A DNA stretch of 55,992 nt, taken from contig JAHFED010000044.1 of the NCBI GenBank assembly GCA_023248635.1, forward strand, positions 1 to 55,992. Reading direction: 5' to 3'. The notes beneath the pieces are model-generated. The model saw only the letters and a program-made list of their open reading frames with translations. It did not search any database and had not been told where the DNA came from. Source of the DNA: Myxococcales bacterium (GTDB lineage: Bacteria > Myxococcota > UBA727 > VGSZ01). The first letter of the stretch is position 1, and the number at the start of each line of letters is the position of its first letter. Positions 11,170 through 55,992 of the stretch are shown here, one piece after another. The translations under genes were made by a program, and so were the position numbers.

Positions 11170-12609
11170 ATGAGCGACGCCGACAACGACCTGAGCAATG
11201 CGGATCTCGCGCCGACCACGCTGGAACGCCGCACCTGGAACCTCTGGCACATCGCCGCCCTCTGGGTGGGCATGGCCGTGTGCATCCCGACCTACACCTT
11301 GGCCTCGGGTCTCGTCGACAAAGGTTGGACCTGGCAGGCCGCCGTCGCCTCGGTGACCCTGGGGAACTTCGTGGTGCTCGTGCCCATGGTGCTCAACGCC
11401 CACGCCGGCACGCGCTACGGCATCCCTTTTCCAGTGCTGGTGCGCTCGAGCTTTGGCACCCGCGGCGCGAACCTCCCGGCCTTGATGCGTGCCTTCGTCG
11501 CCTGCGGCTGGTTTGGCATCAACACCTACATCGGCGGCGCGGCCCTCGCGCAGATGGTGCGCGTGGTCTTCATGGACGGCGTCGGCGGCACCGAGCGCTT
11601 GCCCGTGCTCGGCATCTCGGGGCTCGAGCTCGTGTGCTTCTTGCTGTTTTGGGCCCTGCAGATCGGCATCCTCTTGAAGGGCATCGACAGCATCAAGATG
11701 CTCGAGACCTGGTCTGCGCCCTTTCTCTTGCTCATCGGTGTGGCTTTGCTCGCCTGGGCCGTCGACGCCGCCGGCTCCTTCTCGCGTCTGCTGGAAAACC
11801 CTCAGCCAAGAGACGGCGTCGTCGTCGCTGGCGTGGGGGCGGTGCTCGGCGCGGGCTTGACGACGGCGGTGAGCTTCTGGGGAACCCTGGCGCTGAACAT
11901 CCCCGATTTCTCACGCTTCGCGCGCACGCAGAGGGATCAAATCATCGGTCAAGCTTTGGGCTTGCCCGCCACCATGGCCTTCTTCGCCTTCATCGGCGCC
12001 GTCGTTACCAACGCGACCTTCATCGTCTTTGGCATGCGCATCTCCGATCCCGTGCAACTGCTCGGCAGGATCGGCGGCACGGGCACCACGCTCATCGCCA
12101 TGCTCGCCCTGCTCATCGCCACCCTTACAACCAACGTCGCCGCCAACATCGTCGGCCCGGCCAATGACTTCTCCAACGTCAACCCCAAAAAGATATCGTT
12201 CAAGATGGGCTGCGTGATCACTGCGATTGTCGGTCTGGTGATCATGCCCTGGCGATTGTACAACGACGCCGCTGCCTATCTGTTCACGTGGCTCCTCGGT
12301 TATGGCGCATTGTTGGGCAGCGTCGGCGGCGTGATGATCGCCGATTATTATTTCATTCAAAAGCGCGACCTCGACGTCGACCAGCTCTATAAGAGAGATG
12401 GCAAATACCAGTACACCAAAGGCTGGAACCCCATCGCCGTCGTCGCTTTGTTTGCGGGCATTACGCCCAACCTGCCGGGCTTTCTCTCGGCGCTGGGGCT
12501 GATCAAGGTCGGCGATCCCTGGACCTCTATCTACGACTGGGCCTGGTTCGTCGCCTTCTTCATCGCCGCGGGCGTGCATCTGGTGGGCACGCGGCTGCGG
12601 GGTCGTTGA
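11170..12609 (+). CDS. NCS1-family nucleobase/allantoin/hydantoin:cation symporter
   Basis: The 479-residue protein is strongly hydrophobic, with about 12 membrane segments, the usual size for NCS1 (PucI/Mhp1/CodB-like) transporters. The N-terminus ERRTWNLWHIAALWVGM, the GTRYGIPFPVLVRSSFG segment after helix 2, and WFGINTYIGG in the third helix region are family hallmarks. It would import purine- or pyrimidine-related bases, allantoin or hydantoins with a cation across the inner membrane; the substrate cannot be fixed by eye. AAGGAG lies 5 bases before the ATG. The stop TGA (12607-12609) shares a base with the ATG of the GHKL gene, so the two are probably co-translated although no functional link is known. 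A stretch near 12180-12420 is visibly less GC-rich than its surroundings. Confidence 0.9.
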   Translation: MSDADNDLSNADLAPTTLERRTWNLWHIAALWVGMAVCIPTYTLASGLVDKGWTWQAAVASVTLGNFVVLVPMVLNAHAGTRYGIPFPVLVRSSFGTRGANLPALMRAFVACGWFGINTYIGGAALAQMVRVVFMDGVGGTERLPVLGISGLELVCFLLFWALQIGILLKGIDSIKMLETWSAPFLLLIGVALLAWAVDAAGSFSRLLENPQPRDGVVVAGVGAVLGAGLTTAVSFWGTLALNIPDFSRFARTQRDQIIGQALGLPATMAFFAFIGAVVTNATFIVFGMRISDPVQLLGRIGGTGTTLIAMLALLIATLTTNVAANIVGPANDFSNVNPKKISFKMGCVITAIVGLVIMPWRLYNDAAAYLFTWLLGYGALLGSVGGVMIADYYFIQKRDLDVDQLYKRDGKYQYTKGWNPIAVVALFAGITPNLPGFLSALGLIKVGDPWTSIYDWAWFVAFFIAAGVHLVGTRLRGR

Positions 12610-14186
12610 TGGACGTCCTGCAGACGCTGGTCGCGCAATTCACCGATCCCTTCGCCTGCTTGCGCGAGCTGATCCAAAACGCTCTCGATGCCGGTTCTGA
12701 CGTCGTCGAAGTGAGCACCAGCGTCGACGGCAAAGGCGCTGACGCCTCTTATGTGCTCGAGGTGCAAGACCACGGCTCGGGCATGGACCGGGCCATCATC
12801 GACAGCCAGCTCACCCGCCTGTTTTCGTCGTCGAAGGATGGGGACCTCACCAAGATCGGCAAATTCGGCGTCGGCTTCGTCTCCGTCTTCGCCCTCGATC
12901 CCGTCGCTGTGTGCGTCGACACCGCCAAGGCCGGTGAACGCTGGCGCGTGGTCTTCGGCCGCGACCGCTCCTTCACGCGCGTGCGGCTCGACGACCCCAT
13001 CGAGGGCACCCGCGTGCGCATCTTTCTCGACGATGCCGGCGTGAAACGCCACGGCCCCGGCTGGGACGCCGTCGTCGTCAAAGCCCGCCAGGCGGTGAGC
13101 CACTGGTGTCGCCACGTCGAAAAGGAGCTGCTCTTTGACGGCCACGCGATCAACCGCCCCCTGGGCCTGCCCGAGCACGCGCTCACCGTGACCCGCGACG
13201 ACGGCGCCGGTACCGTCGTCGTCGCCGGCATCCCCCCCTCCGGCTCTCTCTCGACCATCGGCTTTTACAACAAGGGCCTGACCCTCCTCGAGGCCACGGC
13301 CTGGGACGACGTTCCCGCCGACGTCTCGGTGCGCATCTCGTCACGCTGGCTCGAGCACACCCTCACCCGCGACTCCGTGGTGCGCGACGACCGCTACCTC
13401 AAGGCCATGAAGATGGTGCGCTCCGTCGTCGACGACGACCTCTTGCCCCGGGCTCTGGACGTGCTCGAGGGCAGCGACGATCCCCTGGTGCGCGGCCCCC
13501 TGATCGCTTGGCTGCGCGCCCGCCTCAAGGACAAGAAGCTCAAGAAGCGCCCCCTCTTTCGCGGCGTCGGCGGCGCGCGCTTCTCCGTCGACGATGTCGT
13601 CAAACGCGGCTGCTCGGTGGTGGCTCTCGACGACGCGACCGGTGCTGCGGTTGCTGCTGCTGCGGCGGCGGCGGGTCAGCTGGTGTTGGCCGTGAATCCG
13701 GCGCGCTGGGCATCGGATGCCGACGACCTCAGCCAGCTCTGCGGGATCCCCACCCCAGCGCTGCTCACCGTCTATTTGGCCGCCGTCGACGTCGACGCTG
13801 AGCTCGCCCCCCGTGCCGCGCGCCTCGCCGATCTCACCCGGACCTTGCTGCAGGAGGCTCGGCTCTTGAAGGGCACCAGCATCTCCCTGGCGCGTGTGGT
13901 CGGCGCCGGCGGCGGCGGCATTGCCTTCAGCGGCGCCGGCGAAGGCAAGCTCTTGCTGGTGCCCGCCAAAGCCGCAGCACACACATTGAAAGCGCGCCTC
14001 GTTGTCGACGTCGCCCACCCCGACGTCGGCGCGTTGCTGACCTTGGCCGCGAGAGACACGCCGCTGGCGGCCTTTCTCCTCGCCAAGCTGCTCCTGCCCA
14101 TTCCCCTGGGGGCCGCCCCCGACAGCGCCCTCGCCCTGGCGGCGCTGCGGCTGCGTGAGAGCTCCGACCAAGCGGTGGCCCCGTGA
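12609..14186 (+). CDS. Hsp90-like GHKL ATPase
   Basis: From ATG 12609 (TTG 12606 is an in-frame alternative) the product has 525 residues. The N-terminal GHKL nucleotide-binding fold is complete: N-box E20-LIQ-N24-AL-D27, G1 box D54-HGSG, and G2 box GKFGVGF at 84-90. A middle region (about residues 170-280) contains YNKGLTLLE and SSRWLEHTLTRDSVVRDD, recalling the S5-fold middle domain of HtpG/Hsp90, where the end of the domain contacts the ATPase site. Length is shorter than HtpG (about 620) and no typical Hsp90 C-terminal dimerisation domain was recognised. It overlaps the next gene by GTGA, so the 1554-residue protein is a likely partner. An ATP-driven conformational machine, chaperone-like or MutL/MORC-like, is the best description; substrate unknown. 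Confidence 0.75.
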   Translation: MDVLQTLVAQFTDPFACLRELIQNALDAGSDVVEVSTSVDGKGADASYVLEVQDHGSGMDRAIIDSQLTRLFSSSKDGDLTKIGKFGVGFVSVFALDPVAVCVDTAKAGERWRVVFGRDRSFTRVRLDDPIEGTRVRIFLDDAGVKRHGPGWDAVVVKARQAVSHWCRHVEKELLFDGHAINRPLGLPEHALTVTRDDGAGTVVVAGIPPSGSLSTIGFYNKGLTLLEATAWDDVPADVSVRISSRWLEHTLTRDSVVRDDRYLKAMKMVRSVVDDDLLPRALDVLEGSDDPLVRGPLIAWLRARLKDKKLKKRPLFRGVGGARFSVDDVVKRGCSVVALDDATGAAVAAAAAAAGQLVLAVNPARWASDADDLSQLCGIPTPALLTVYLAAVDVDAELAPRAARLADLTRTLLQEARLLKGTSISLARVVGAGGGGIAFSGAGEGKLLLVPAKAAAHTLKARLVVDVAHPDVGALLTLAARDTPLAAFLLAKLLLPIPLGAAPDSALALAALRLRESSDQAVAP

Positions 14187-17100
14187 GCGACGTCATCAGC
14201 CAACTCATCGGCGGCGGCGTCGTCGACTCCCGCGGCGTCTTCACCGTCGACGCCAAGAAGGCCCAAGAAAAGCTCGAGCGCTTCCGCCTGGCCGACCCCC
14301 TGGGCTACGTCGTCGAGCTGGTGCAGGCCGCTGGGCTGTGTGGCGCCACCTTCGTCGACGTCGAAGTCACGGCTTCGCTCTTTCGCCTGCGCTTCGATGG
14401 CCGGGCCTTCGGCGCCAGCGATCTCCAAGACCTCGAGAGCGCCGTGCTGGTGCGCAACGATCTCGACCACCCCGCGCGGCAGCAACTGGCCCTCGGGGTC
14501 TCGGCCGCGCGGGCCCTCGATCCCCGCTTCGTCAGTGTGCAAAGTGAAACAACGAAGCTGCTCCTCGACGACGAAGGCTCCTCCCACCTCGGCGACCAGC
14601 CCGCCCTCGAGTCTCCCTTCACCACCCAGATCGAAGTGCAGGAGGCCTTCCGCATTGGCCACTTCGTCGAGTTCTTCCAGGGCGCGTTCGGCATGCAGAA
14701 GGAAGAGCGGCTGCTCGCGGAGCGCTGCCGACACGCGCGCTTCACGGTCTCGGTCAATGGCGTCGTCGTCAGCCACAAGCCGCCTCCGACGGACGTGCAG
14801 ATCGACGTCATCGAAGACGGCTTCGTCGGCTCCTTTGGCTATCGCTTTGGGTCCTTTCTCCCCGGGCGCCTCATGATCCTACGCGCTGGGGTCGTGCAGG
14901 AATCGGTGCTCTTCGTCGACGAAGGGGCCTGTGCCGGATTGCCGGTTCCCCGAGGTTTCGTCGCCGTCGTCGACGCTCCGCACCTGCCCCGCGACGCCTC
15001 GTTCAGCCGCTTCATCCGCAACGACGCCTTCAACGCACTGGTGCGCAGCGCCCTCAAGCGAGCGGCACCCGCCGCCCAACAACTGCTGCGCGCCGGCGAC
15101 GACGGCTCGGGGCGCAGACCGGCCGCTTTGGCCGTCCCTGACGATCACCACCTCTGGGCCCACGACGTCGTCCGCGATGTGCTTGCCTCCTTGGGGGCTC
15201 CTGCGCGCACCAGCACCAACAAGCAGATCGCCGCCCTGCGCTCGCTGCCGCTGTTCACCGATGCCCTCGGTGCGCCCCTCACCTTTGATGCGATCCTCGA
15301 GGACATGAGGCGCCACGGTCACGCCGCCACCGTGGCCGCCAAGCGCACGGCCCTGCACCTGAAGCCGCCGCGACCCGTGCTCCTCGTCGACGAGGTGGTC
15401 GAGCAGTGGATGGCCCGCCTGGGCGTGCCCCTCAAAGACATCACCACGGCCGTCGACGAAGCCGACAAAAGGGAGCTCAGCCAGACCCGCTTCCGCGCCC
15501 GACGCACGCTCTGCAACCTGCCGACGTCGGCCTCCTTCGCCGCCCAGGTCCGCTTCGATGCTTCAGAAAACGAACGCGGCGTCATCGGCTTTCGCAGCGG
15601 CGGTGCTGAACCGGCGCAGATCATCGTCGTCGTCGACGGCTGCGAGTTGGCCCACCTCTCGGTGCCCTTCGTGGTTCCGGGCCTCAGCATCGTCGTCGAG
15701 GGAGCCTTCACGCCCACCTTCAACTACGACGACGTCGTCAGAAATGCGGCCCTCTCCAAGGCTCTGGTGCGGGCGGCGGCGGCCATTCCCCTGCTCTTTG
15801 ATGGCCTGCGCCGGGCTCCTGGGCGTCACCGCGAGGCCTTGGTCGCCTGTCTCGCCCTCTACCTCGACGGCAGCGCCCTGGCCGCGGCCCTGCTCGAGGC
15901 AGCCGGCTGCCCCAAGCACCCCGTCAACCTCGAGACCCTCAGCCTCGATCACCCCGCCGCCACCGCCCGCCTCTTCACCACCATGGGACGAGACGAGGTC
16001 TCGCTCGAAGAGCTGACGAAAGACCAAGGCCCCATCGGCGTCGTCGGCGTCGACGTCATCAACTTCACGCCCTCGGTGCGCCCCACCCTGCGGGCGGGTG
16101 AGGTGCTGCGCGCGGTGTTGCGCAAGGTGGTGCCCCATCGCCCCCTCATTTCAATGAACGACGAAGCGCTCCAGGCGCGCCGGCGCCAGGAGCTGCGCGA
16201 CCGCAACCCCGAGACCCTGGCCATTGCCGACGTCAGCGCTCGGGTCGCCGTCTCGACGCGCCTGGAGGTTGCTGGCTCGGTCAAGCCCGTGCCCACCGTC
16301 GTCACCGGCTTCGTCGGTCATCGACCAGGCGGAGCGCGCGCCAAGCTCGAGCTGGCGGTCTATTGCGAGGGCCGCCGCCTGCAGGTCGCGAAGCTGGCCG
16401 CGCCCGTGTCGGGCCTGATTGCGGCGCTCAACGACGACCGGCTCGAGCTCACCGGCAAGCTGCAACCCCACGGCAGCATCGATCACCTCGTGGGCGCGGC
16501 CCTGGCAGCGGTGCCCAAGCTCATGGCCGCGCTCGCCGATCCCTGGCCCCTCGCCGTCGACGTCGTCAGCTGCTTGCTCCCCACCGATCAACACCGCCAA
16601 GCCCTCGCGCGCCTGCAGGCAAACCTCCCCCCCAAAGAGGTCGGACCGGCCTGGACAGAGGTGCTCTTGCTCTCGGCGGAGTCCTCGCCCAACAGCGACG
16701 GCGACGTCGCTGCGGCCCTGGAGCTGGTGTTGGCCGAAGGAGCCGTGCCCACCGTCGATCGGGTCGCCGAAGTCGTCGGCGGCAAGAAGAAGAAGGCCAC
16801 CACCGACGCCCGCGTCGACTTCTTGGGGAGCGCGCTGGGATCGCCAGGCTTGGTCGACGAGGGCCCCTTGCTGACGCGCGTGCTCGAGGTCTTTGGCATC
16901 GATGAATTCGTCGTCGCGCGACTCGATGGATCGACGACGACGCTCGCGGAGCTGCTGACCCAAGGGGTGGCGCGCTCGGTGTCCCAGGCCGCCCCGATGG
17001 TGAAGGGCTTCGGCGACGTCGTGGTGTTGTCGACGTCGGCAGCGGCCGTGATGGCCCGGCTCCGCGAGCTCCCGATCGAAGATGCCAGCGCCGCCCTGGC

Positions 17101-18847
17101 CGAGGCCGCCGCACGCCTGGCCTTCGAGCAGAAGCAGAACGTCGCCGCCGTCATCGACGCCGACGTCGCCACTCTCGTTCGCACCCGCATCGACGACGAT
17201 GGCCTGCACGGTGAGGTCGCCCTCTTGCCCGGCGCGGCGGCGCTGAAGCCCGCTGCCGAGTTGGTGCTGCTGCACAAAGGCAAGCACCTCGCGCGCGTTG
17301 CGGTGGGGCAGTTCGTAGGCATGGCCCTTTTGGCCGTCGTCGACGCCGACGACGTCACCCCCACGGGCAACTTCGACGGCGTCGAACACGATGCCAAGCT
17401 CACCCGGGTCATCGAGCGTCTGCGCGCCGCGCGCGACGAGCTGGTCGCTGACCTCGTCGACGACGTGCAAAAGGCCGGCGCCAGCGAGAAGGTCTCGGTG
17501 CGGGCCCGTCTGCTCGAGCGCCTGCGCATCTCCCACACCGACAAACGCAAGGCGATGCCGAAGACGGGGCTGGCCGCGCGCATCGCCGACCTGGCGTTTT
17601 TCCCCACCGTCGTTGGCGTCGATATTCCCTTGCGCGATCAAGGCGGCGATGACGACTGCGTGCGCTTCTTGTCGGCGCCCGTGCGCTCCGAAGACGTGCC
17701 CCCGGGATTCGACGACGTCGTGATCATTCAAAGGGCCGCCGAGCGCGAGCTGATGGACAAGATCCTCGAGATCGACGACGTCGAAAAGAGCTTCGCCGCG
17801 GCGGCGCGCCTGCACGAGACCCGCAAACGGCTGCCCGCGCTCTGCTTCGACATCGTCGAGGACGTGCTGGTGCAGCACACGACCCACATCGGCAAAGCCC
17901 AGCTGCGCATGGGGCTGCCGCGCACCCATCCCGACCACACGCGTCTGCAAATGCGCGTGGGCCACGACGGGCTGCTGGTCGAGTCGCTTGGGGCGCCGCT
18001 GGTGCCCTGCAACGGCGTGCTCAGCGGCGAAAACGTCGTCGCCAAGGACCTGCGCAGTGCCCGCGTCGACGACAAGCTGCTGCAGAGCATCGCGCGCGAA
18101 AGCGCGGTGCTGTGGGGCAAGGCCATCGATGTCTTCAACAAGGGGGAGAGCAACGACGACGATCACCGTGCCCTGCGCGCCTGGTTGCACCACGGTGCGC
18201 TGCGCTTCGTGAACCAAGACGCGGGGAAAGTGCCCGGCTGGCTGACGGCTCTGCGTCTTCGCTTGCTGGATGTCCGGGTGCTGCCCCTCGACGGCGCCTT
18301 CATCTCCTTGAACACCGCCATCCAAGAGCAGCCGCCGGCGCTGGCGAAGCTCCTACGTCAACACGCATTGGTGCGGCTGCCGCCACCTGTCGCAGTCGCT
18401 GCGAGCGAAGCGCCCGTCGACGTTCCTGAGCCCGTGTATCTGCAGCAGCCCCTGCCCCCGCCGCCGCCCCCCGTCCAGGCGGCACCCGAGCCCGCGCCCG
18501 CGCCGCCTTCGGACCACGAGCTCCTCGAGCAGCGCCTGGTGCAAATCATCGCCGTCGTGCGGGAGCGCTCGAAGGGTCTCACCAGCGACCTCGAGCTCAA
18601 CCGCCTCGTCATCGCCAACGCCCGAGGCAAAGTTGCGGCGCGCGTCGACAAGAGCAACAACCGCGTCGTCGTCGATCTCGACCATCCCCTGAGTCGCGCC
18701 GCCCTGCAGAGCGCACCCGCGCTGGCGATGTTGGCCAGTCTGGTCGTCACCCGCATCAACGACCGGCTGGAGTCCGTCAGCGACGACGACGAACGTCGCT
18801 TCCTCTCGAGCTTGATCGCTCACGCCCGCACCCTCGAGGCAGGCTGA
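14183..18847 (+). CDS. 1554-residue partner: degenerate GHKL-like domain plus repeated Hsp90-middle-domain-like units
   Basis: GTG start overlaps the upstream stop (GTGA), implying coupled synthesis. Residues 1-200 resemble the neighbouring GHKL ATPase but lack key residues: E45 of the N-box is kept, the catalytic-loop Asn is A49, and the Asp-x-Gly-x-Gly box is FDGRAFG (71-77). Five divergent units then recur at about 206-301, 460-543, 706-786, 1001-1091 and 1240-1317. Their pattern is a Gly-rich start, a strand with 'Y/L-x-x-G-R/K-x-L', a central 'GL-x-A-V-V-D-A', then 'F-x-x-V-x-x-D-A-x-L' and a basic helix. The same pattern occurs in the ATPase middle domain. A Pro-rich linker (about 1418-1443) leads to a roughly 110-residue C-terminal domain. 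No known family was recognised overall, and function is unknown. Confidence 0.7.
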   Translation: MSDVISQLIGGGVVDSRGVFTVDAKKAQEKLERFRLADPLGYVVELVQAAGLCGATFVDVEVTASLFRLRFDGRAFGASDLQDLESAVLVRNDLDHPARQQLALGVSAARALDPRFVSVQSETTKLLLDDEGSSHLGDQPALESPFTTQIEVQEAFRIGHFVEFFQGAFGMQKEERLLAERCRHARFTVSVNGVVVSHKPPPTDVQIDVIEDGFVGSFGYRFGSFLPGRLMILRAGVVQESVLFVDEGACAGLPVPRGFVAVVDAPHLPRDASFSRFIRNDAFNALVRSALKRAAPAAQQLLRAGDDGSGRRPAALAVPDDHHLWAHDVVRDVLASLGAPARTSTNKQIAALRSLPLFTDALGAPLTFDAILEDMRRHGHAATVAAKRTALHLKPPRPVLLVDEVVEQWMARLGVPLKDITTAVDEADKRELSQTRFRARRTLCNLPTSASFAAQVRFDASENERGVIGFRSGGAEPAQIIVVVDGCELAHLSVPFVVPGLSIVVEGAFTPTFNYDDVVRNAALSKALVRAAAAIPLLFDGLRRAPGRHREALVACLALYLDGSALAAALLEAAGCPKHPVNLETLSLDHPAATARLFTTMGRDEVSLEELTKDQGPIGVVGVDVINFTPSVRPTLRAGEVLRAVLRKVVPHRPLISMNDEALQARRRQELRDRNPETLAIADVSARVAVSTRLEVAGSVKPVPTVVTGFVGHRPGGARAKLELAVYCEGRRLQVAKLAAPVSGLIAALNDDRLELTGKLQPHGSIDHLVGAALAAVPKLMAALADPWPLAVDVVSCLLPTDQHRQALARLQANLPPKEVGPAWTEVLLLSAESSPNSDGDVAAALELVLAEGAVPTVDRVAEVVGGKKKKATTDARVDFLGSALGSPGLVDEGPLLTRVLEVFGIDEFVVARLDGSTTTLAELLTQGVARSVSQAAPMVKGFGDVVVLSTSAAAVMARLRELPIEDASAALAEAAARLAFEQKQNVAAVIDADVATLVRTRIDDDGLHGEVALLPGAAALKPAAELVLLHKGKHLARVAVGQFVGMALLAVVDADDVTPTGNFDGVEHDAKLTRVIERLRAARDELVADLVDDVQKAGASEKVSVRARLLERLRISHTDKRKAMPKTGLAARIADLAFFPTVVGVDIPLRDQGGDDDCVRFLSAPVRSEDVPPGFDDVVIIQRAAERELMDKILEIDDVEKSFAAAARLHETRKRLPALCFDIVEDVLVQHTTHIGKAQLRMGLPRTHPDHTRLQMRVGHDGLLVESLGAPLVPCNGVLSGENVVAKDLRSARVDDKLLQSIARESAVLWGKAIDVFNKGESNDDDHRALRAWLHHGALRFVNQDAGKVPGWLTALRLRLLDVRVLPLDGAFISLNTAIQEQPPALAKLLRQHALVRLPPPVAVAASEAPVDVPEPVYLQQPLPPPPPPVQAAPEPAPAPPSDHELLEQRLVQIIAVVRERSKGLTSDLELNRLVIANARGKVAARVDKSNNRVVVDLDHPLSRAALQSAPALAMLASLVVTRINDRLESVSDDDERRFLSSLIAHARTLEAG

Positions 18848-47633: not shown

Positions 47634-48497
47634 TCAGAAGTCGAGGAGCTTCAGAACCAGCTGCTGCTGCTGGTTTGCCTGAGCCAGCACGGAGATCGCG
47701 GCCTGCTGCAGGATGCTGGCCCTGGCCGCCGTGGCCGTCTCTTCGGCGAAGTCGACATCGCGAACCCGACTCAGGGCCGACGTCGCCTCCTCCGTCGCCG
47801 TGGCGATGGTCGACGACGCCGACGCGAGGCGGTTGGCAACAGCGCCGAGGGTCGCCCGAAAGGTCGAGACGTCGTTGATGGCGGCGTCGATGACGGCGAG
47901 GGCCGACGCGGATTGCGCAGCCGAGGTCTCGAGATTGAGGGGGCCGCCCACCGCGATCTCGGTGATGTTGTTGGAGCCGTTGCCGAGCTGGAGCGCGTCG
48001 ACGTTCATGGCTGTCGTGTCGAGGGTGATGAAATCGTTGGGGGAGCCGCGGATCCCGACCTGGAAGGTCTGGGGGCTCGCAGCACCGAAGATCGCGGCGC
48101 CGTTGAACTCAGTGGTGGCGTCGATGCGGTCGAGCTCGGCGATGAGCTCGTTGGCTTCCACCTGCAGGAAGGCGCGATCCTCGTTGGTCAACCCGTCCGA
48201 CGACGACTGCAGCGCCAGCTCTCGCAGACGCGTGAGGATGTTGGAGCTCTCGTTCAAGGCCGCTTCGGCGGTCTGGGCCACCGAGAGCCCATCGGCGGCG
48301 TTGCGGCCGGCCTGCAGAAAGCTGCGAATCTGCGCGTTGAGGTTGGTGGCCACGCCCAGCCCGGCTGCGTCGTCGGAGGCGCGGGTGATGCGCAGGCCGC
48401 TCGAGAGCTTGGCCAGCGAATTCTCGAAGCTCGCCGTCGCCACGTTTAAGCTTCGCTGCGCTTGGAGCGATGGGATGTTGGTGCGAATCGACAGCAT
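47634..48497 (-). CDS. fliC: Flagellin
   Basis: The 287-residue protein has the classic flagellin ends. The N-terminal D0/D1 region carries SLQAQRSLNVATASFENSLAKL and SSGLRITRASDDAAGLG. The C-terminal helix region carries AQSASALAVIDAAINDVSTFRATLGA and ILQQAAISVLAQANQQQQLVLKLL. The variable D2/D3 domains are essentially absent, so this is a minimal filament protein. A strong AAGGAG lies 6-7 bases before the ATG. It is polymerised into the flagellar filament after export by the flagellar type III system. No other flagellar gene is within the window, which is unusual for flagellin loci. Confidence 0.95.
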   Translation of the reverse strand: MLSIRTNIPSLQAQRSLNVATASFENSLAKLSSGLRITRASDDAAGLGVATNLNAQIRSFLQAGRNAADGLSVAQTAEAALNESSNILTRLRELALQSSSDGLTNEDRAFLQVEANELIAELDRIDATTEFNGAAIFGAASPQTFQVGIRGSPNDFITLDTTAMNVDALQLGNGSNNITEIAVGGPLNLETSAAQSASALAVIDAAINDVSTFRATLGAVANRLASASSTIATATEEATSALSRVRDVDFAEETATAARASILQQAAISVLAQANQQQQLVLKLLDF

Positions 48498-48930: not shown

Positions 48931-50217
48931 TTAGTTCACGCAGCTCGCGAAGGCCGCCGAAATGTAACCGCGCAGGGCTCCCTGCTGTACTTCGTGCCAG
49001 CTCTGGTTCCCGCGCACCTCTTGCCCGACCGCAGTGGACAAGCGCCCGACGACGGCGCCGTTGGCGATGGTGCCCCGGGGGGCCTGCTGCGTCGACGCCG
49101 ACGGCCTGACGTTCAGGGGCGCTCCATCGGTCTGGACTCGCACCTGGGTACAAGTGGGTGGGGGCGCCGGCGGCGGCGTTGCGACGGGGGTGACGCGGAG
49201 GCCATCGAAGGTGACCTGGCGGCCGAGGGAGCCGTGCTCGCCGGTGTTGTCGTCGAGGCGCACCTGCTGGCCTTCGCCGACGGCGAAGTCGAAGACACCC
49301 AGGGAGCGGAAGTTGCCCGCTGCCGTCAGATCGAGAGTGATCAAATCGGTACGCCCGTTGTGACGGATGGAGTACTTGGCCTGTCGCGAACTGGCGTAGT
49401 CGCGGTTGATGTAGGCCTCCAGACGGTAGGGACCGGGCTGCTGCACTTTGATCCACCAGACGCCGAAGTTGTCCGGGGCGGGGCTGGCGGTGACGCCGGT
49501 CCAAATGAGGTCGCCATCGTGGCCGGCGTCGCCGACGGAGCGGAGGTATTGGCTTGGTCCCCCCGGGGTGAAGCAGTTGTCGCCGTCGTCGATGATGCCG
49601 CCAGCGGCGGGGAGGGCCGCGCAGTCGGTGGGCGCGACGTTGGTGGGCGCGGGCACGTGGCCACAGGGTCCTTCGAAGTCGCCGGCGGCGCCCCACCACT
49701 CCCAGTGCCAGGTCTCAGAGGGCACCGTGCGCGAGAAGCCGAAGCGGCCGCCGTTGCGGTTCAGCCACGTCAGCACCCCGCTCTCAGCGGTGTTGAGATC
49801 GAGGGCATGACCCGATTGGTGGTTGGAGTAGCCGGGCGCTGCCGCGAGGTTGCAGGAGTTGCAGTTGCAGTCGACGTAGCAGCCGTAGAGGTAGTCCTGC
49901 TCGTCGTTGGTGCGAAAGCCCGACACCACGCGCAGGTTGACGCCGTCGCGGCGAGCAGCGTCTTGCAAGGCGATGTAGGCGTTGGCGGTGTCGACTTCGA
50001 CCGGCTTGGCATCGACACGGACGACGCTGATGGCGAAGCGAGCTCCCTGGCGGTAACCACTGTCGGCGCGCTCGGTGCAGTCGTAGACGCCCTGCTCTTC
50101 GAGATTTGCGTAGTCGTCGACGGGCTCGAAGTGGTCGGCGCCGTCGTCGAGCTCGTGCTCGCAGGCGCCCAAGGCCACGCTGAAAAAAAAGAGGGCGACG
50201 AGTTGTTGGGTTCGCAT
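48931..50217 (-). CDS. M15 (VanY-type) D,D-carboxypeptidase lipoprotein with SH3 domain
   Basis: ATG 50217 gives 428 residues and a signal peptide with lipobox LGAC (C19). The M15/VanY domain follows (about 60-190), with VVSGFRTNDEQ, the zinc motif SNHQSGHALDL, and WHWEWWG supplying the catalytic Glu and third ligand. A Cys-rich insertion (CYVDCNCNSC) lies inside it. Residues about 215-345 form a beta-sandwich of the golvesin/CBM-like kind. The C-terminus is an SH3-type wall-binding domain (LNVRPSASTQ...WHEVQQG). The enzyme should trim terminal D-alanine from peptidoglycan in the envelope, or act on foreign walls. Confidence 0.88.
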   Translation of the reverse strand: MRTQQLVALFFFSVALGACEHELDDGADHFEPVDDYANLEEQGVYDCTERADSGYRQGARFAISVVRVDAKPVEVDTANAYIALQDAARRDGVNLRVVSGFRTNDEQDYLYGCYVDCNCNSCNLAAAPGYSNHQSGHALDLNTAESGVLTWLNRNGGRFGFSRTVPSETWHWEWWGAAGDFEGPCGHVPAPTNVAPTDCAALPAAGGIIDDGDNCFTPGGPSQYLRSVGDAGHDGDLIWTGVTASPAPDNFGVWWIKVQQPGPYRLEAYINRDYASSRQAKYSIRHNGRTDLITLDLTAAGNFRSLGVFDFAVGEGQQVRLDDNTGEHGSLGRQVTFDGLRVTPVATPPPAPPPTCTQVRVQTDGAPLNVRPSASTQQAPRGTIANGAVVGRLSTAVGQEVRGNQSWHEVQQGALRGYISAAFASCVN

Positions 50218-50319
50218 CGCTGAGCACGGTGCCTGGGCGCCGTCGCCTTGCTCATCCACCAAACTACGTTGGATGTCCCACGCCGCATCCGCCCCTTGGC
50301 CGAGAGGTGGGGCTCTCCC

Positions 50320-52528: not shown

Positions 52529-52724
52529 CGACGAGCCCGCGCCGCCGTTGCGTCGAGCCAGCACGAACGCGTCCGGTAGGTGGCACCCAGGTCGGGGGCT
52601 TCGGTCGAAAGGCTGAACCGCGCTCGAAGAATCCCATCGTCGGACAAGACGAGGTGCCAGTGCGTTGATTTCGCCGACAACCCACCCACTGCTGACGTCC
52701 CAGCAGCCCCCCCGGGAGGATTCC

Positions 52725-54137
52725 ATGACGGTGAGTGGTGTAGCCGATTCGACGTCAGCAACGGTTCAGGCCCAGCGCCGGCAGCAGGAAACGCAGCAGA
52801 CCGCGGCCCCTCCGCCGCAAACGCCGACGACCGACGTGCACTCGGTCGGCGCCACCCCGCCCACCGTCGACGTCGGCGCCGCTCAAGAGCGCAACGAAGT
52901 CGCTGGGCAGAAATGGGACGACTTTCGCGGCACCGGCGCCAAGATCGACGCCGCCCGGCACCTCGACGACAAGGACCACGACAGCCTCTACGCCCAGCCG
53001 CACACCGATGGTGCCGGGGCCAAAGTCAAAACGCCCACAGCCAACGCCGATCTCCCCAGCGCAGGTGCGGCCGCATCCATCGTCGGCGGCGTCGCCACCG
53101 TCGACGCCAGCCCCGCCACTGCGGCCGCAGTCACGGCTTCGCCCCCCACCAAAGCAGCCGCCACCGCCGCCGACGCCAAAACGACAGCGCCGGCGCCCTC
53201 CGCGACCCCGACGGAAAAGGCGGCGGCGAAACCGACGGCGGAGCCTCCTGCGCAAAAAGCCACCAAGCCGCCGGCGCCGTCTCCGGCGGCAGCGACGACG
53301 CCGGCGGCGAAAACGGGCCTGGCCAAGACCCTCGAGGACCATCCCAGAATCAAGACCAACCAGGACCTGATCAACCACTACTACCGGCACGGTGGTGGCA
53401 CCTGGGAAGGCGCTTCGCGGCTGGCAAGAAGCGAAGGCGCCTCGCTGACCCAGATGGCGCGCAACCGCCGCAAATCGCCCGTCCCCGCGGCCCCGCCGAA
53501 GACCTCGACCGATGCCGCCACGATGAAGACGGCCCCTGCCGCACCGACCACGAACGCCCCGGCAACGTCGACGACCAAGCCTTTGGCGCCGCCGACGAAG
53601 GCCCCAGCGGATTCGAGCTCAAGGGTCGGTGCTGACAGCCACGCGACCAAGGCGGCGAGCCCAGCGCCCAAGCCCGAGGGCGTCGGTCGCTCGATGCGCA
53701 CTTTCCGCGACGTCGATCAGGCCAAGCTCGAGGCGGCGTTGCCCGACAACGCCAAGCACCTCGCCAGGGCCTTCATCGAAGAGGGGCGCAAGAACAACCT
53801 CGACCCCGTCGTCCTCGCTGCCATCTCCAAGTTCGAGACCGGCAACTTCAGCAGTCGAGCGTTCAAGCACAAGAACAATGCCATGGGGATCTCGAACAGG
53901 CATGGCCCGACGATGCAGGAGTCTGCTGAAGCCAGCATCGCGAAGATGGCGACCTCCCTCGCCAACCCCGACGGCTACTACGGCGGCAAGGACACGATCG
54001 GCGAGGTCGCCGGCGTCTACGCACCTGAGGACGCTGAAAACGATCCGAACGGCACCAACAACCAATGGGGGGGCAGCGTCGCCCGCATCGCTGATCAGCT
54101 CGACTCCAAGGTCCGTCCCACAGCGGCGTCGAGATAG
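52725..54137 (+). CDS. Signal-less glycan hydrolase (GH73/lysozyme-like) with distinctive N-terminal module
   Basis: ATG 52725 follows GGGAGGA; upstream codons in the same frame are not needed. The 470-residue protein has no Sec signal. The first 80 residues contain ATPPTVDVGAAQERN and AGQKWDDFRGTGAKIDAA, a segment shared with the truncated gene at 55750. Residues about 85-215 and 245-320 are Ala/Pro/Thr/Lys-rich linkers, around a LysM-like middle region (NHYYRHGGGTWEGASRLA, about 220-260). The C-terminal domain (about 330-470) resembles bacterial glucosaminidases/muramidases: LDPVVLAAISKFETG supplies a catalytic Glu, followed by FKHKNNAMGIS. It likely hydrolyses peptidoglycan glycans after export by a non-Sec route. 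Confidence 0.78.
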   Translation: MTVSGVADSTSATVQAQRRQQETQQTAAPPPQTPTTDVHSVGATPPTVDVGAAQERNEVAGQKWDDFRGTGAKIDAARHLDDKDHDSLYAQPHTDGAGAKVKTPTANADLPSAGAAASIVGGVATVDASPATAAAVTASPPTKAAATAADAKTTAPAPSATPTEKAAAKPTAEPPAQKATKPPAPSPAAATTPAAKTGLAKTLEDHPRIKTNQDLINHYYRHGGGTWEGASRLARSEGASLTQMARNRRKSPVPAAPPKTSTDAATMKTAPAAPTTNAPATSTTKPLAPPTKAPADSSSRVGADSHATKAASPAPKPEGVGRSMRTFRDVDQAKLEAALPDNAKHLARAFIEEGRKNNLDPVVLAAISKFETGNFSSRAFKHKNNAMGISNRHGPTMQESAEASIAKMATSLANPDGYYGGKDTIGEVAGVYAPEDAENDPNGTNNQWGGSVARIADQLDSKVRPTAASR

Positions 54138-54154
54138 GAGCGTTCGACCGCCCC

Positions 54155-54220
54155 GCGCTGGTCGCGGGAGCCGCGGCCAGCGCTGACTGCGGGGTCCGTC
54201 CTCCTCGTCGCGCAGGACGG
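54155..54220. terminator. Two strong hairpins between converging genes
   Basis: GCGCTGG-T-CGCGG (54155-54167) pairs with CCGCG-G-CCAGCGC (54171-54183), a 13-bp stem with one G-T wobble and a 3-base loop. CCGTCCT (54196-54202) pairs with AGGACGG (54214-54220). They lie between the converging glycan hydrolase and protease genes and probably terminate both; neither has a T-run. Confidence 0.45.
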
Positions 54221-54266
54221 GCTCGCGCTCAACGCTTCAGCGCGCCTTCGACGGGCTGGCGCTTGG

Positions 54267-55328
54267 TCAGCTCATCGTCTTGCGGGGGCGTCGTCGGGCG
54301 GGGCGCAGCGCGCCCACCACGATCAGACCGGAGAACAGGGTCGGGGCGGCGGCGTCGGCTGCAGCACAACCCGCGCTCGGGCCGGCGGCGTCGAGCGCTC
54401 TCTCATCCTCCGCGCTCTGGTCGTCATCGGGCGCCAGATCGTCGGGCGTCGGATCATCCGGCGTCGGATCATCGGGCGTCGGATCGGCGTCATCGTCGTC
54501 ATCGATCGGTGGACCGTCGTCGTCATCGTCGCCGTCATCGATCGGCGGGCCGTCGTCGCCGTCGCCCGCACCATCGTCGGCCTCGTCGTGCTCCGCGATG
54601 TGCTCCTCGAGGAAGGTGACGAAGGAGTCAATGCGCGTGTTGGCGTTGAACCCGTCGCAGTCCTCGCTCTCGGACCACGAATCCACGCCGACGATGGTCT
54701 CCACGCCCTCGATGGTCATCAGCGCCGGGCCGCCGGAATCGCCGAAGCATTGGTTGTGGGCGCGCTCGCCGGCGTAGACCCAATCCTCGTCGAAATCGAT
54801 CAACGGGGCGCTGGCCATGCGCTTGCGACCAAAGCCCTGGGTCGGAGATTCGACGGTGTTGTCGCCGTAACCGACGATGCGGACGGGCTGGTCCACGAGA
54901 TCGTTGGTCAATGCTGTGCGCTGGTAGGGGATCGGCTCGACGTCGAAGGGCTCCGCGAGGATCAGCACCGCCATGTCGGCAGCGCCGCCGTCGTAGAGAG
55001 GGTGAACGTGGCTCGCGACCGCATCTATGATCTCACCCCCATCGCGGTCGTCGTCGTTGGGACCGGTGAAGATCGCGAAGGGACCGCCCTCGATGCAGTG
55101 GCCGGCGGTCAATACCACGTGGGGTGACACCAGAGATCCCGTGCAGATTCCCTGGTCGTCAGCGAGCACCTCGACGATGGCAGGGTCGCCGTTGTCGTTG
55201 ACGCCGCCGACGATGGGTGCCCGTTTCACGGTGGTGTTTGTGCTCCAAGCTGTAACGCCACCGCTGCCACAGCCGGCGGTGAGCCCCCAGGCGGCGATTG
55301 CGCAGGACACAGACGCGCGGCGGATCAT
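54267..55328 (-). CDS. Trypsin-like (S1) serine protease with MYXO-CTERM-like tail
   Basis: ATG 55328, preceded by AGAGG, gives 353 residues. A signal peptide with a lipobox-like TAGC is followed by the S1 domain beginning at IVGG. The triad is complete: TAGHC (His), ADMAVLIL (Asp) and FGDSGGPA (Ser). A long acidic spacer (Asp/Pro runs such as PDDPTPDDP, about residues 250-300) separates the protease from the C-terminal tail. The tail is a Cys-containing segment, a hydrophobic stretch (FSGLIVVGAL) and an Arg-rich end, as in MYXO-CTERM sorting signals, so the protease is probably displayed or released at the cell surface. Confidence 0.88.
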   Translation of the reverse strand: MIRRASVSCAIAAWGLTAGCGSGGVTAWSTNTTVKRAPIVGGVNDNGDPAIVEVLADDQGICTGSLVSPHVVLTAGHCIEGGPFAIFTGPNDDDRDGGEIIDAVASHVHPLYDGGAADMAVLILAEPFDVEPIPYQRTALTNDLVDQPVRIVGYGDNTVESPTQGFGRKRMASAPLIDFDEDWVYAGERAHNQCFGDSGGPALMTIEGVETIVGVDSWSESEDCDGFNANTRIDSFVTFLEEHIAEHDEADDGAGDGDDGPPIDDGDDDDDGPPIDDDDDADPTPDDPTPDDPTPDDLAPDDDQSAEDERALDAAGPSAGCAAADAAAPTLFSGLIVVGALRPARRRPRKTMS

Positions 55329-55749
55329 GTCGACCTCTTCTCGTTTTTTGTGCCGAGCCAGCAGCACCACGCTGCGCGCCGCAGCATGCCGGCGTCCCTC
55401 ATCCCCAGAGCTCCCCCCGCTGACGGAGCTCCGGAGCTGCGCGCGTCCTCCCCTTGCCGAAGGCGCGAACAGGGAGAAGCGAAGGTCGCCCAGGGCCTGA
55501 CACGAACACCACGTCGTTCAGGACCTGCGGCGAGCTCGATGGCTCGATGGGTTGCGCTCGACCCAATGGCAACACGTCCGGATCCCATCCTGGTACGGCG
55601 TTGAGGCGTCGTCGTCGCCCACCCATCGGCGCGGCGGCCGATGCTCTGGAGCAGCGTGGGGTGCGGTCTCATCATCGAGATGAACGAGAGGCGGCCTGCC
55701 AGATCAGGCCGACAAGGGCTGTACACGGGTCACACAAACGAGGTGTTCT
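55329..55749. other. Intergenic region with no recognised gene
   Basis: These 421 bases separate the minus-strand protease from the plus-strand gene at 55750. Open frames here, such as one of 133 codons on the minus strand, have Arg/Ala-rich nonsense-like composition and no ribosome site. No repeat or clear terminator was seen. It should contain the promoters of both flanking genes. Confidence 0.6.
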
Positions 55750-55992
55750 ATGTGCGGTAGCGCCAGCGTTACTTCGTCTCCTCCTCCAGCGACGTACAAC
55801 CGCGATGTCCAGCGCGCGGCAGATGCCCACCCGCCAGCGGCCCCCGCGCTCCCACCCTGCGCTCCGCCGGCGGCAACGCCCCCTGTCGACGTCCACGCTG
55901 CGTGCGCGAACAACGCCGCCAAGGCGGGACAGTGGCAGGGCTTCTGCGGTACCGAGAAGAAGGTCGACGCCGCCGCGCTGCCACCGAGCTGC
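55750..55992 (+). CDS. Truncated gene sharing the N-terminal module of the glycan hydrolase
   Basis: The frame is open from ATG 55750 to the window end (81 codons), so the 3' part is missing. GAGG at 55738-55742 is a suitable ribosome site. There is no signal peptide; the start is MCGSASVTSSPPPATYN, a Pro/Ala-rich segment follows, and then ATPPVDVHAACANN and AGQWQGFCGTEKKVDAAAL. The latter lines up with residues 45-80 of the protein at 52725: ATPP, VDV-x-AA, N, AGQ, W/F, GT, K-V/I-DAA. Six Cys residues in 81 distinguish it. The function of the missing part is unknown. Probably the same export or targeting route as the hydrolase. Confidence 0.65.
   Translation, partial: MCGSASVTSSPPPATYNRDVQRAADAHPPAAPALPPCAPPAATPPVDVHAACANNAAKAGQWQGFCGTEKKVDAAALPPSC

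What the first reader, a model, noticed from the sequence alone, without database searches (positions are those of the whole stretch)
52725..55992. Shared N-terminal module on two signal-less proteins, one a glycan hydrolase
Seen: residues about 45-80 of the hydrolase at 52725 and of the truncated protein at 55750 share ATPP, VDV-x-AA, N, AGQ, an aromatic-x-x-F, GT, and K-(I/V)-DAA at matching distance from the start. Both then diverge, and neither has a Sec signal. Inference: this is a leader or chaperone-binding module for a non-Sec export system (type III/flagellar, type VI, contractile injection or similar) that carries different effector domains. The window does not show the export apparatus.
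Basis: partly seen in the sequence, partly recalled or inferred. Interest (0 to 1): 0.75.

Follow-up and report, generated by a model that had tools for sequence, protein, structure and literature searches.

The report
Modular signal-less cell-wall hydrolases in Myxococcota
Two neighbouring proteins of this myxococcotal bacterium share a real N-terminal module, and the complete one belongs to a scattered family of cell-wall-cutting enzymes without export signals that are tied together by a small, previously uncatalogued helical domain, making them candidates for the still-unknown lytic effectors of predatory bacteria.

Summary
The N-terminal match between the 52725 hydrolase and the truncated 55750 protein is far above shuffled sequence (score 92; best of 3,000 shuffles 72). 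A third copy lies on another contig (C48), on a CHAP hydrolase, so it is neither composition nor a purely local duplication. The module (two predicted helices, aa 10-25 and 50-67) was found only in this genus: three genes here and a weaker one in one sister genome.

It has no Pfam, PHROG or PDB match. It is on four genes here, in 14 of 195 Myxococcota genomes and in two further named Myxococcota assemblies. It sits beside glucosaminidase, CHAP, M23, transglycosylase, chitosanase, phage-lysozyme, GH5 or C39 domains, sometimes in tandem. None of 22 intact N-termini looks like a Sec signal.

A dedicated export machine is not shown. The genome has no T6SS or contractile sheath gene by the marker tested and one orphan type III export-gate gene; the type III gate gene is no commoner in carriers. 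Best reading: signal-less, wall-targeted lytic enzymes delivered by an unidentified non-Sec route, with the NQDL domain more likely a targeting domain than an export tag.

The parts
52725..54137 (+). 470-aa signal-less modular hydrolase: N-module, Ala/Pro/Thr linker, NQDL domain, linker, glucosaminidase-like domain
   Evidence: ORF; GGGAGG at 52714-52719 before the ATG; layout from the AF2 model and linker composition, 65-66% A/P/T/S
52752..52799 (+). N-module helix 1 (aa 10-25)
   Evidence: AF2 helix, pLDDT about 82 in the block
52851..52955 (+). N-module core (aa 43-77), with helix 2 (aa 50-67) and the WDDFRGT motif
   Evidence: shared with C72b and C48; helix 2 pLDDT about 89
53316..53477 (+). 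NQDL domain (aa 198-251), new four-helix domain
   Evidence: 59-76% identical among four genes of this genome; AF2 pLDDT 95.8, pTM 0.80; no Pfam, PHROG or PDB match
53766..54098 (+). glucosaminidase-like (GH73) catalytic domain (aa 348-458)
   Evidence: PF01832 E 1.9e-4, below the curated cut-off; PDB 8yxk phage cell wall hydrolase E 3e-4
53835..53837 (+). candidate catalytic glutamate E371, in FETGN
   Evidence: aligned with HETGN of 8yxk; position
55750..55992 (+). 5' part (81 aa) of a second N-module gene, cut by the contig end
   Evidence: GAGGTG at 55740-55745
55873..55974 (+). N-module core of the second protein (aa 42-75)
   Evidence: alignment to C72a and C48, scores 92 and 141

Best explanation
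The 52725 protein, and probably the 55750 one, belongs to a scattered, domain-shuffling family of signal-less cell-wall hydrolases of Myxococcota. SHOWN: N-terminal two-helix module, long disordered Ala/Pro/Thr linker, one compact four-helix NQDL domain, second linker, exchangeable hydrolase domain; no Sec-like N-terminus. INFERRED: the enzyme is made and stored in the cytoplasm, where it is harmless because its substrate is outside. It leaves by a route other than Sec (contact-dependent export, or release on lysis). The NQDL domain then holds it on the wall or on a surface partner while the C-terminal domain cuts peptidoglycan of prey or competitors. The genus-specific N-module is the likeliest part to choose the route or bind a partner or chaperone, but nothing here shows that.
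For: NQDL is on four unlinked genes of this genome, in 14 of 195 Myxococcota genomes and in two named Myxococcota MAGs, under purifying selection (59-76% aa identity with four-fold sites at 43-58%). Partner domains are nearly all lytic: glucosaminidase, CHAP, M23+LysM, Phage_lysozyme2+LysM+PG_binding_1+CHAP, SLT_2, GH46, GH5, C39. Zero of 22 intact N-termini has a strong hydrophobic stretch, against 61 of 184 neighbouring genes. Tandem copies (three in L039, two in L040, L041, L036 and L091) and positions from N-terminal to C-terminal fit a binding or targeting domain. N-module copies in three own genes, with helices in the AF2 model.
Against: No export machine is linked by gene order. FHIPEP is in 13 of 14 NQDL genomes but also in 149 of 181 others, so there is no association, and G012 with three NQDL genes lacks FHIPEP, TssC and sheath (82% complete). 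No binding or secretion data exist. In Myxococcaceae-like genomes the partner is a C39-type peptidase, not obviously a wall enzyme, and two proteins (L032, L079) are little more than the domain. The glucosaminidase match is below Pfam's cut-off and its part of the AF2 model is mostly low-confidence.
Confidence: 0.45

Rival explanations
1. Dedicated effectors: the N-module and/or the NQDL domain is the recognition tag of a specific machine, such as the needle-less type III-like system (T3SS*) of predatory myxobacteria or a type IV system, working as XVIPCD does for the Xanthomonas T4SS.
For: No Sec signal in any intact carrier; one shared domain on many enzyme types scattered over the genome. 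An orphan FHIPEP gene beside lexA-like and ABC-transporter-like genes is kept in this genome and the sister genome G185. Published: M. xanthus T3SS* mutants kill prey but fail to lyse it, and its effectors are unknown (PMC10433427).
Against: NQDL occurs in tandem and at any position, unusual for a tag; no co-occurrence with FHIPEP beyond its base rate; G012 carries three NQDL genes without FHIPEP; no adjacent immunity or chaperone gene was seen; the N-module is genus-limited.
Confidence: 0.25
2. Cytoplasmic autolysins or endolysin-like enzymes with no export: released when the producer lyses, or acting on its own wall after membrane permeabilisation, derived by shuffling of phage lysin parts.
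For: Endolysin-like make-up without signal peptides; the C48 CHAP domain matches cyanophage tail and endolysin proteins (33-39% identity); C48 matches phrog_37890; the window catalytic domain is nearest a phage cell wall hydrolase.
Against: No NQDL relative in viral contigs or close match in phages; no holin or phage genes recognised next to these genes; conservation across several families argues for a chromosomal function.
Confidence: 0.22
3. Two-step secretion without a signal peptide, as for M. xanthus PopC, which reaches the periplasm by an unknown step and leaves with the help of the TonB-dependent transporter Oar.
For: PopC precedent: featureless N-terminal part plus a C-terminal hydrolase, no signal peptide (PMC6434023).
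Against: No sequence link to PopC was tested; an active wall hydrolase passing through its own periplasm would be risky.
Confidence: 0.06
4. Composition effect or purely local duplication.
For: The two window genes are about 1.6 kb apart and Ala/Pro-rich.
Against: Shuffle tests; better match on another contig; helices with pLDDT 82-89.
Confidence: 0.02

Closest known systems
X-T4SS effectors with the XVIPCD domain (Xanthomonas, Stenotrophomonas)
   Same: One shared domain on antibacterial proteins with varied enzymatic parts that often target the cell envelope; effectors scattered over the genome
   Different: XVIPCD is C-terminal and binds VirD4; effectors sit with immunity genes (PMC6759196). 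NQDL is 54 aa, found at any position and in tandem, with no immunity gene seen.
T3SS*/Kil contact-dependent killing machinery of Myxococcus xanthus
   Same: Same phylum; prey lysis needs T3SS*, and its effectors are unknown (PMC10433427); unassigned wall hydrolases fit the gap
   Different: No experimental or gene-order link; NQDL presence does not follow FHIPEP presence
Modular phage endolysins and bacterial PG hydrolases with wall-binding repeats (LysM, PG_binding_1, SH3b)
   Same: Catalytic domain plus small, sometimes tandem non-catalytic domain; no signal peptide; some carriers also hold LysM or PG_binding_1
   Different: NQDL is not any known binding domain by sequence, is chromosomal, and was not found in phage sequence
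eCIS cargo with N-terminal loading peptides (Photorhabdus PVC)
   Same: N-terminal segment in front of varied cargo (PMC11495950)
   Different: No contractile sheath gene in this genome; the AF2 model puts much of this module in two helices
PopC of M. xanthus
   Same: Signal-less hydrolase of the same phylum with an uncharacterised N-terminal part, secreted all the same (PMC6434023)
   Different: Subtilisin protease; no NQDL link tested

Membership tests
T6SS or eCIS effector | Contractile apparatus (TssC/VipB or sheath) in the genome | tested here: not met
   PF05943 and PF04984: no match in G000, 96.7% complete; controls rang
T3SS/flagellar substrate | Type III export gate in the genome | tested here: met
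   One FHIPEP gene, E 1.9e-237, at C49; orphan, not in a flagellar or sct cluster
T3SS/flagellar substrate | Genomic association of carriers with the export gate | tested here: inconclusive
   13 of 14 NQDL genomes versus 149 of 181 others have FHIPEP; no enrichment
T3SS/flagellar substrate | Secretion through the machine | not testable with these tools
   Needs mutants and secretion assays
X-T4SS effector (XVIPCD) | Domain at the C-terminus | tested here: not met
   NQDL is central in the window protein and tandem or at other positions elsewhere
X-T4SS effector (XVIPCD) | Sequence match to a described secretion domain | tested here: not met
   No Pfam family fits the domain
X-T4SS effector (XVIPCD) | VirB/VirD4 T4SS in the genome | not tested
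GH73 glucosaminidase (PF01832) | Score over the curated cut-off | tested here: not met
   22.6 bits against 30.2, E 1.9e-4
GH73 glucosaminidase (PF01832) | Catalytic Glu in the expected place | tested here: met
   FETGN (E371) aligns with HETGN of PDB 8yxk; activity not tested
Known wall-binding domains (LysM, PG_binding, SH3b) | Sequence match | tested here: not met
   No such match to 18 NQDL domains in Pfam
Known wall-binding domains (LysM, PG_binding, SH3b) | Fold match | tested here: inconclusive
   No Foldseek match at E 0.001; best Z 2.1, Fis-like helices

The most novel reading that the evidence does not exclude
The NQDL domain, with lineage-specific N-terminal modules, marks the missing lytic effectors of a contact-dependent, non-Sec killing machine of Myxococcota (T3SS* or an undescribed one), so that the effector set can be read from the genome by one domain search.
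Probability: 0.2. Interest if true: 0.85.

Novelty: new variant of a known kind. Interest (0 to 1): 0.5.

Why it matters
How myxobacteria lyse prey at contact is open: the T3SS* system is needed for lysis, but its effectors are unknown. A domain that picks out signal-less wall hydrolases gives a short, testable candidate list in sequenced myxobacteria, probably including culturable ones. The domain also appears to be an undescribed family that could be added to Pfam.

Tried and rejected
Composition effect and local duplication: rejected by shuffles and the C48 copy. Broad spread of the N-module: outside the genus the best hit was E 3.4e-4 and the rest of a long weak list about 0.004 or worse, read as low-complexity chance; the G185 copy itself is marginal pairwise (1 of 3,000 shuffles reaches its score with C72a; its scores with C72b and C48 are within chance), and its strong E-value is circular because it was in the model. 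T6SS and contractile injection: markers absent. FHIPEP co-occurrence: no signal. Phage or plasmid origin of NQDL: none found. Fold relatives of NQDL: none convincing. Myxococcaceae-type NQDL proteins share a D-x-F-E motif near aa 40; an HMM search for other carriers gave no significant ones beyond the seeds apart from one E 0.001 hit in a frame with a stop, and an FE..L(S/T)GG DNA pattern gave hits that look mostly like the ABC-transporter LSGG motif, so no link to the N-module is claimed. Continuation of the second gene: contig ends; C15 also starts inside an NQDL gene, but no overlap joins the two.

Full report
WHAT WAS CHECKED. The window is the whole of contig C72 of a 6.53-Mb, 135-contig genome (96.7% complete), so the second gene is cut by the contig end and cannot be extended. 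All motif elements listed are present, in order, at aa 43-77 and 42-75. The alignment score of 92 exceeds every one of 3,000 block shuffles that keep local Ala/Pro content (maximum 72; similar). Searching the genome with the first 92 residues returns the second protein (E 0.0014) and, better, a gene at C48:508-1500 (E 8.5e-9). C48 scores 132 and 141 against the two window proteins, shuffle maxima 79 and 81.

A SECOND, STRONGER SHARED DOMAIN. The C48 protein (330 aa, MCSSNGLSS..., CHAP hydrolase by PF05257, E 3.8e-5, just under its cut-off) shares with the window hydrolase not only the N-module but the block GLxKTLxDxPxIKTNQxLINHYYxxGGGTWEGASRLA. Searching that block from the window protein alone finds four genes in this genome: C72 (glucosaminidase), C35 (8e-22), C48 (2e-21) and C15 (6e-19). 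C35 has a C-terminal part with no Pfam family; C15 has a long N-terminal part without Pfam family, cut by its contig end. Amino-acid identity among the four is 59-76% while four-fold degenerate sites agree only 43-58% of the time: old duplication under purifying selection.

SPREAD AND PARTNERS. A profile of the four finds relatives in six other genomes, best E 6.5e-20, of which the last two were at E 9e-4; a profile of 18 domains finds 14 of 195 Myxococcota genomes, and a scan of the named genome collection adds MAG.451 and KLAP109. Seed members score high by construction, but new genomes came in at E 9e-19 to 3e-7 (G066, G069, G080, G085, G090, G127, G151). Partner domains: glucosaminidase; CHAP; LysM+M23; LysM+CHAP+PG_binding_1+Phage_lysozyme2; PG_binding_1; GH46 chitosanase; SLT_2; GH5 cellulase; and, in family f18, Peptidase_C39_2. 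The domain occurs two or three times in tandem in five loci (L039, L040, L041, L036, L091), at the C-terminus (G187), in the centre, or nearly alone (L032, L079). It has no Pfam, PHROG or PDB sequence match, no relative in viral contigs or plasmids and only chance-level hits in phages.

STRUCTURE. AlphaFold2 gives the domain as four short helices with pLDDT 95.8 and pTM 0.80; no Foldseek match in PDB or viral models passes E 0.001, and the best re-aligned chains are helix-turn-helix-like at Z 2.1, so no function can be read from the fold. The full window protein model shows two N-module helices (aa 10-25 and 50-67; block pLDDT about 82 and 89), a disordered linker (about aa 71-174 below 50), the NQDL domain (about 97), a second disordered linker, and a helical C-terminal domain that is only partly confident. 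The C-terminal domain matches PF01832 below its cut-off and a solved phage cell wall hydrolase with the Glu of (F/H)ETGN conserved.

NO SEC SIGNAL. With a hydropathy test over the first 35 residues from each start, 0 of 22 intact carriers reach the level that 61 of 184 neighbouring genes reach, once internal starts and an upstream simple repeat in L040 are set aside. This is a crude test, not SignalP, and C35 has an Ala/Val-rich stretch at about aa 28-45.

WHICH EXPORT ROUTE. The genome has no TssC/VipB and no contractile sheath. It has one FHIPEP gene, at C49 among lexA-like and ABC-transporter-like genes; the sister genome G185 has a similar arrangement plus a second FHIPEP gene inside a flagellar cluster. 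Neighbours of NQDL genes in the loci examined show no export cluster recognisable to me and no conserved partner gene (most neighbours were judged by eye, not by a family search). FHIPEP is in 162 of 195 genomes, 13 of the 14 carriers, so co-occurrence says nothing; G012 has three NQDL genes and none of the three markers, but is 82% complete. A T4SS was not tested.

MECHANISM. Shown: shared modules, exchangeable lytic domains, no Sec-like signal, scattered genes, purifying selection. Inferred: storage in the cytoplasm, release by a non-Sec route, targeting by NQDL, lysis of another cell's wall. I prefer targeting over export tag for NQDL because it is repeated in tandem and has no fixed position; the N-module, N-terminal and present once, is the better candidate for route selection, but only within this genus. 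Literature precedents: XVIPCD effectors of the X-T4SS (PMC6759196), signal-less PopC (PMC6434023), and the unidentified T3SS* effectors needed for prey lysis in M. xanthus (PMC10433427).

VERDICT. Observation confirmed; interpretation partly supported. The important element is the NQDL domain, an uncatalogued marker of signal-less lytic enzymes in Myxococcota.

Noticed in passing
window 47634-48497 (-): A complete flagellin (both Flagellin_N and Flagellin_C) stands alone, and the only FHIPEP gene found in the genome is not in a flagellar cluster; either flagellar genes fell in assembly gaps or the flagellin is orphaned.
   Followed up: partly
window 54267-55370 (-): Trypsin-like protease between the two N-module genes, with an Asp/Pro-rich repeat tail and a C-terminal Cys, hydrophobic stretch and Arg-rich end resembling a MYXO-CTERM sorting signal; it does have a Sec-type start, unlike its neighbours.
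   Followed up: no
window 48931-50262 (-): VanY-type D-Ala-D-Ala carboxypeptidase with Golvesin_C-like and SH3-like parts and a lipoprotein-like signal: an ordinary secreted wall enzyme near the signal-less one.
   Followed up: partly
window 12606-14186 and 14183-18847 (+): Overlapping gene pair: an HSP90/sacsin-like ATPase-domain protein followed by a 1554-aa protein with no significant Pfam domain.
   Followed up: no
L013:1-150 (C48 start): Tandem copies of a GC-rich unit containing a palindrome (TTTGCGCCGTGCCAACGGCGCAAAGCAGGAAGCCC) just upstream of the C48 CHAP hydrolase.
   Followed up: no
L080, L081, L083, L084, L033: Myxococcaceae-type C39 peptidases with an NQDL domain share a D-x-F-E motif in otherwise divergent, disordered N-termini; L129 and L137 carry RSTFE and GDSFE in other apparently signal-less proteins. 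Possible short linear motif, not proven.
   Followed up: partly
L035 (G187:C107): A decayed NQDL copy interrupted by a stop codon, seemingly a pseudogene.
   Followed up: no
L026/L021 (C15 end): C15 ends inside an NQDL gene whose 5' part is missing, and C72 ends inside an N-module gene whose 3' part is missing; orientations would fit one gene across a gap, but no overlap supports it.
   Followed up: partly
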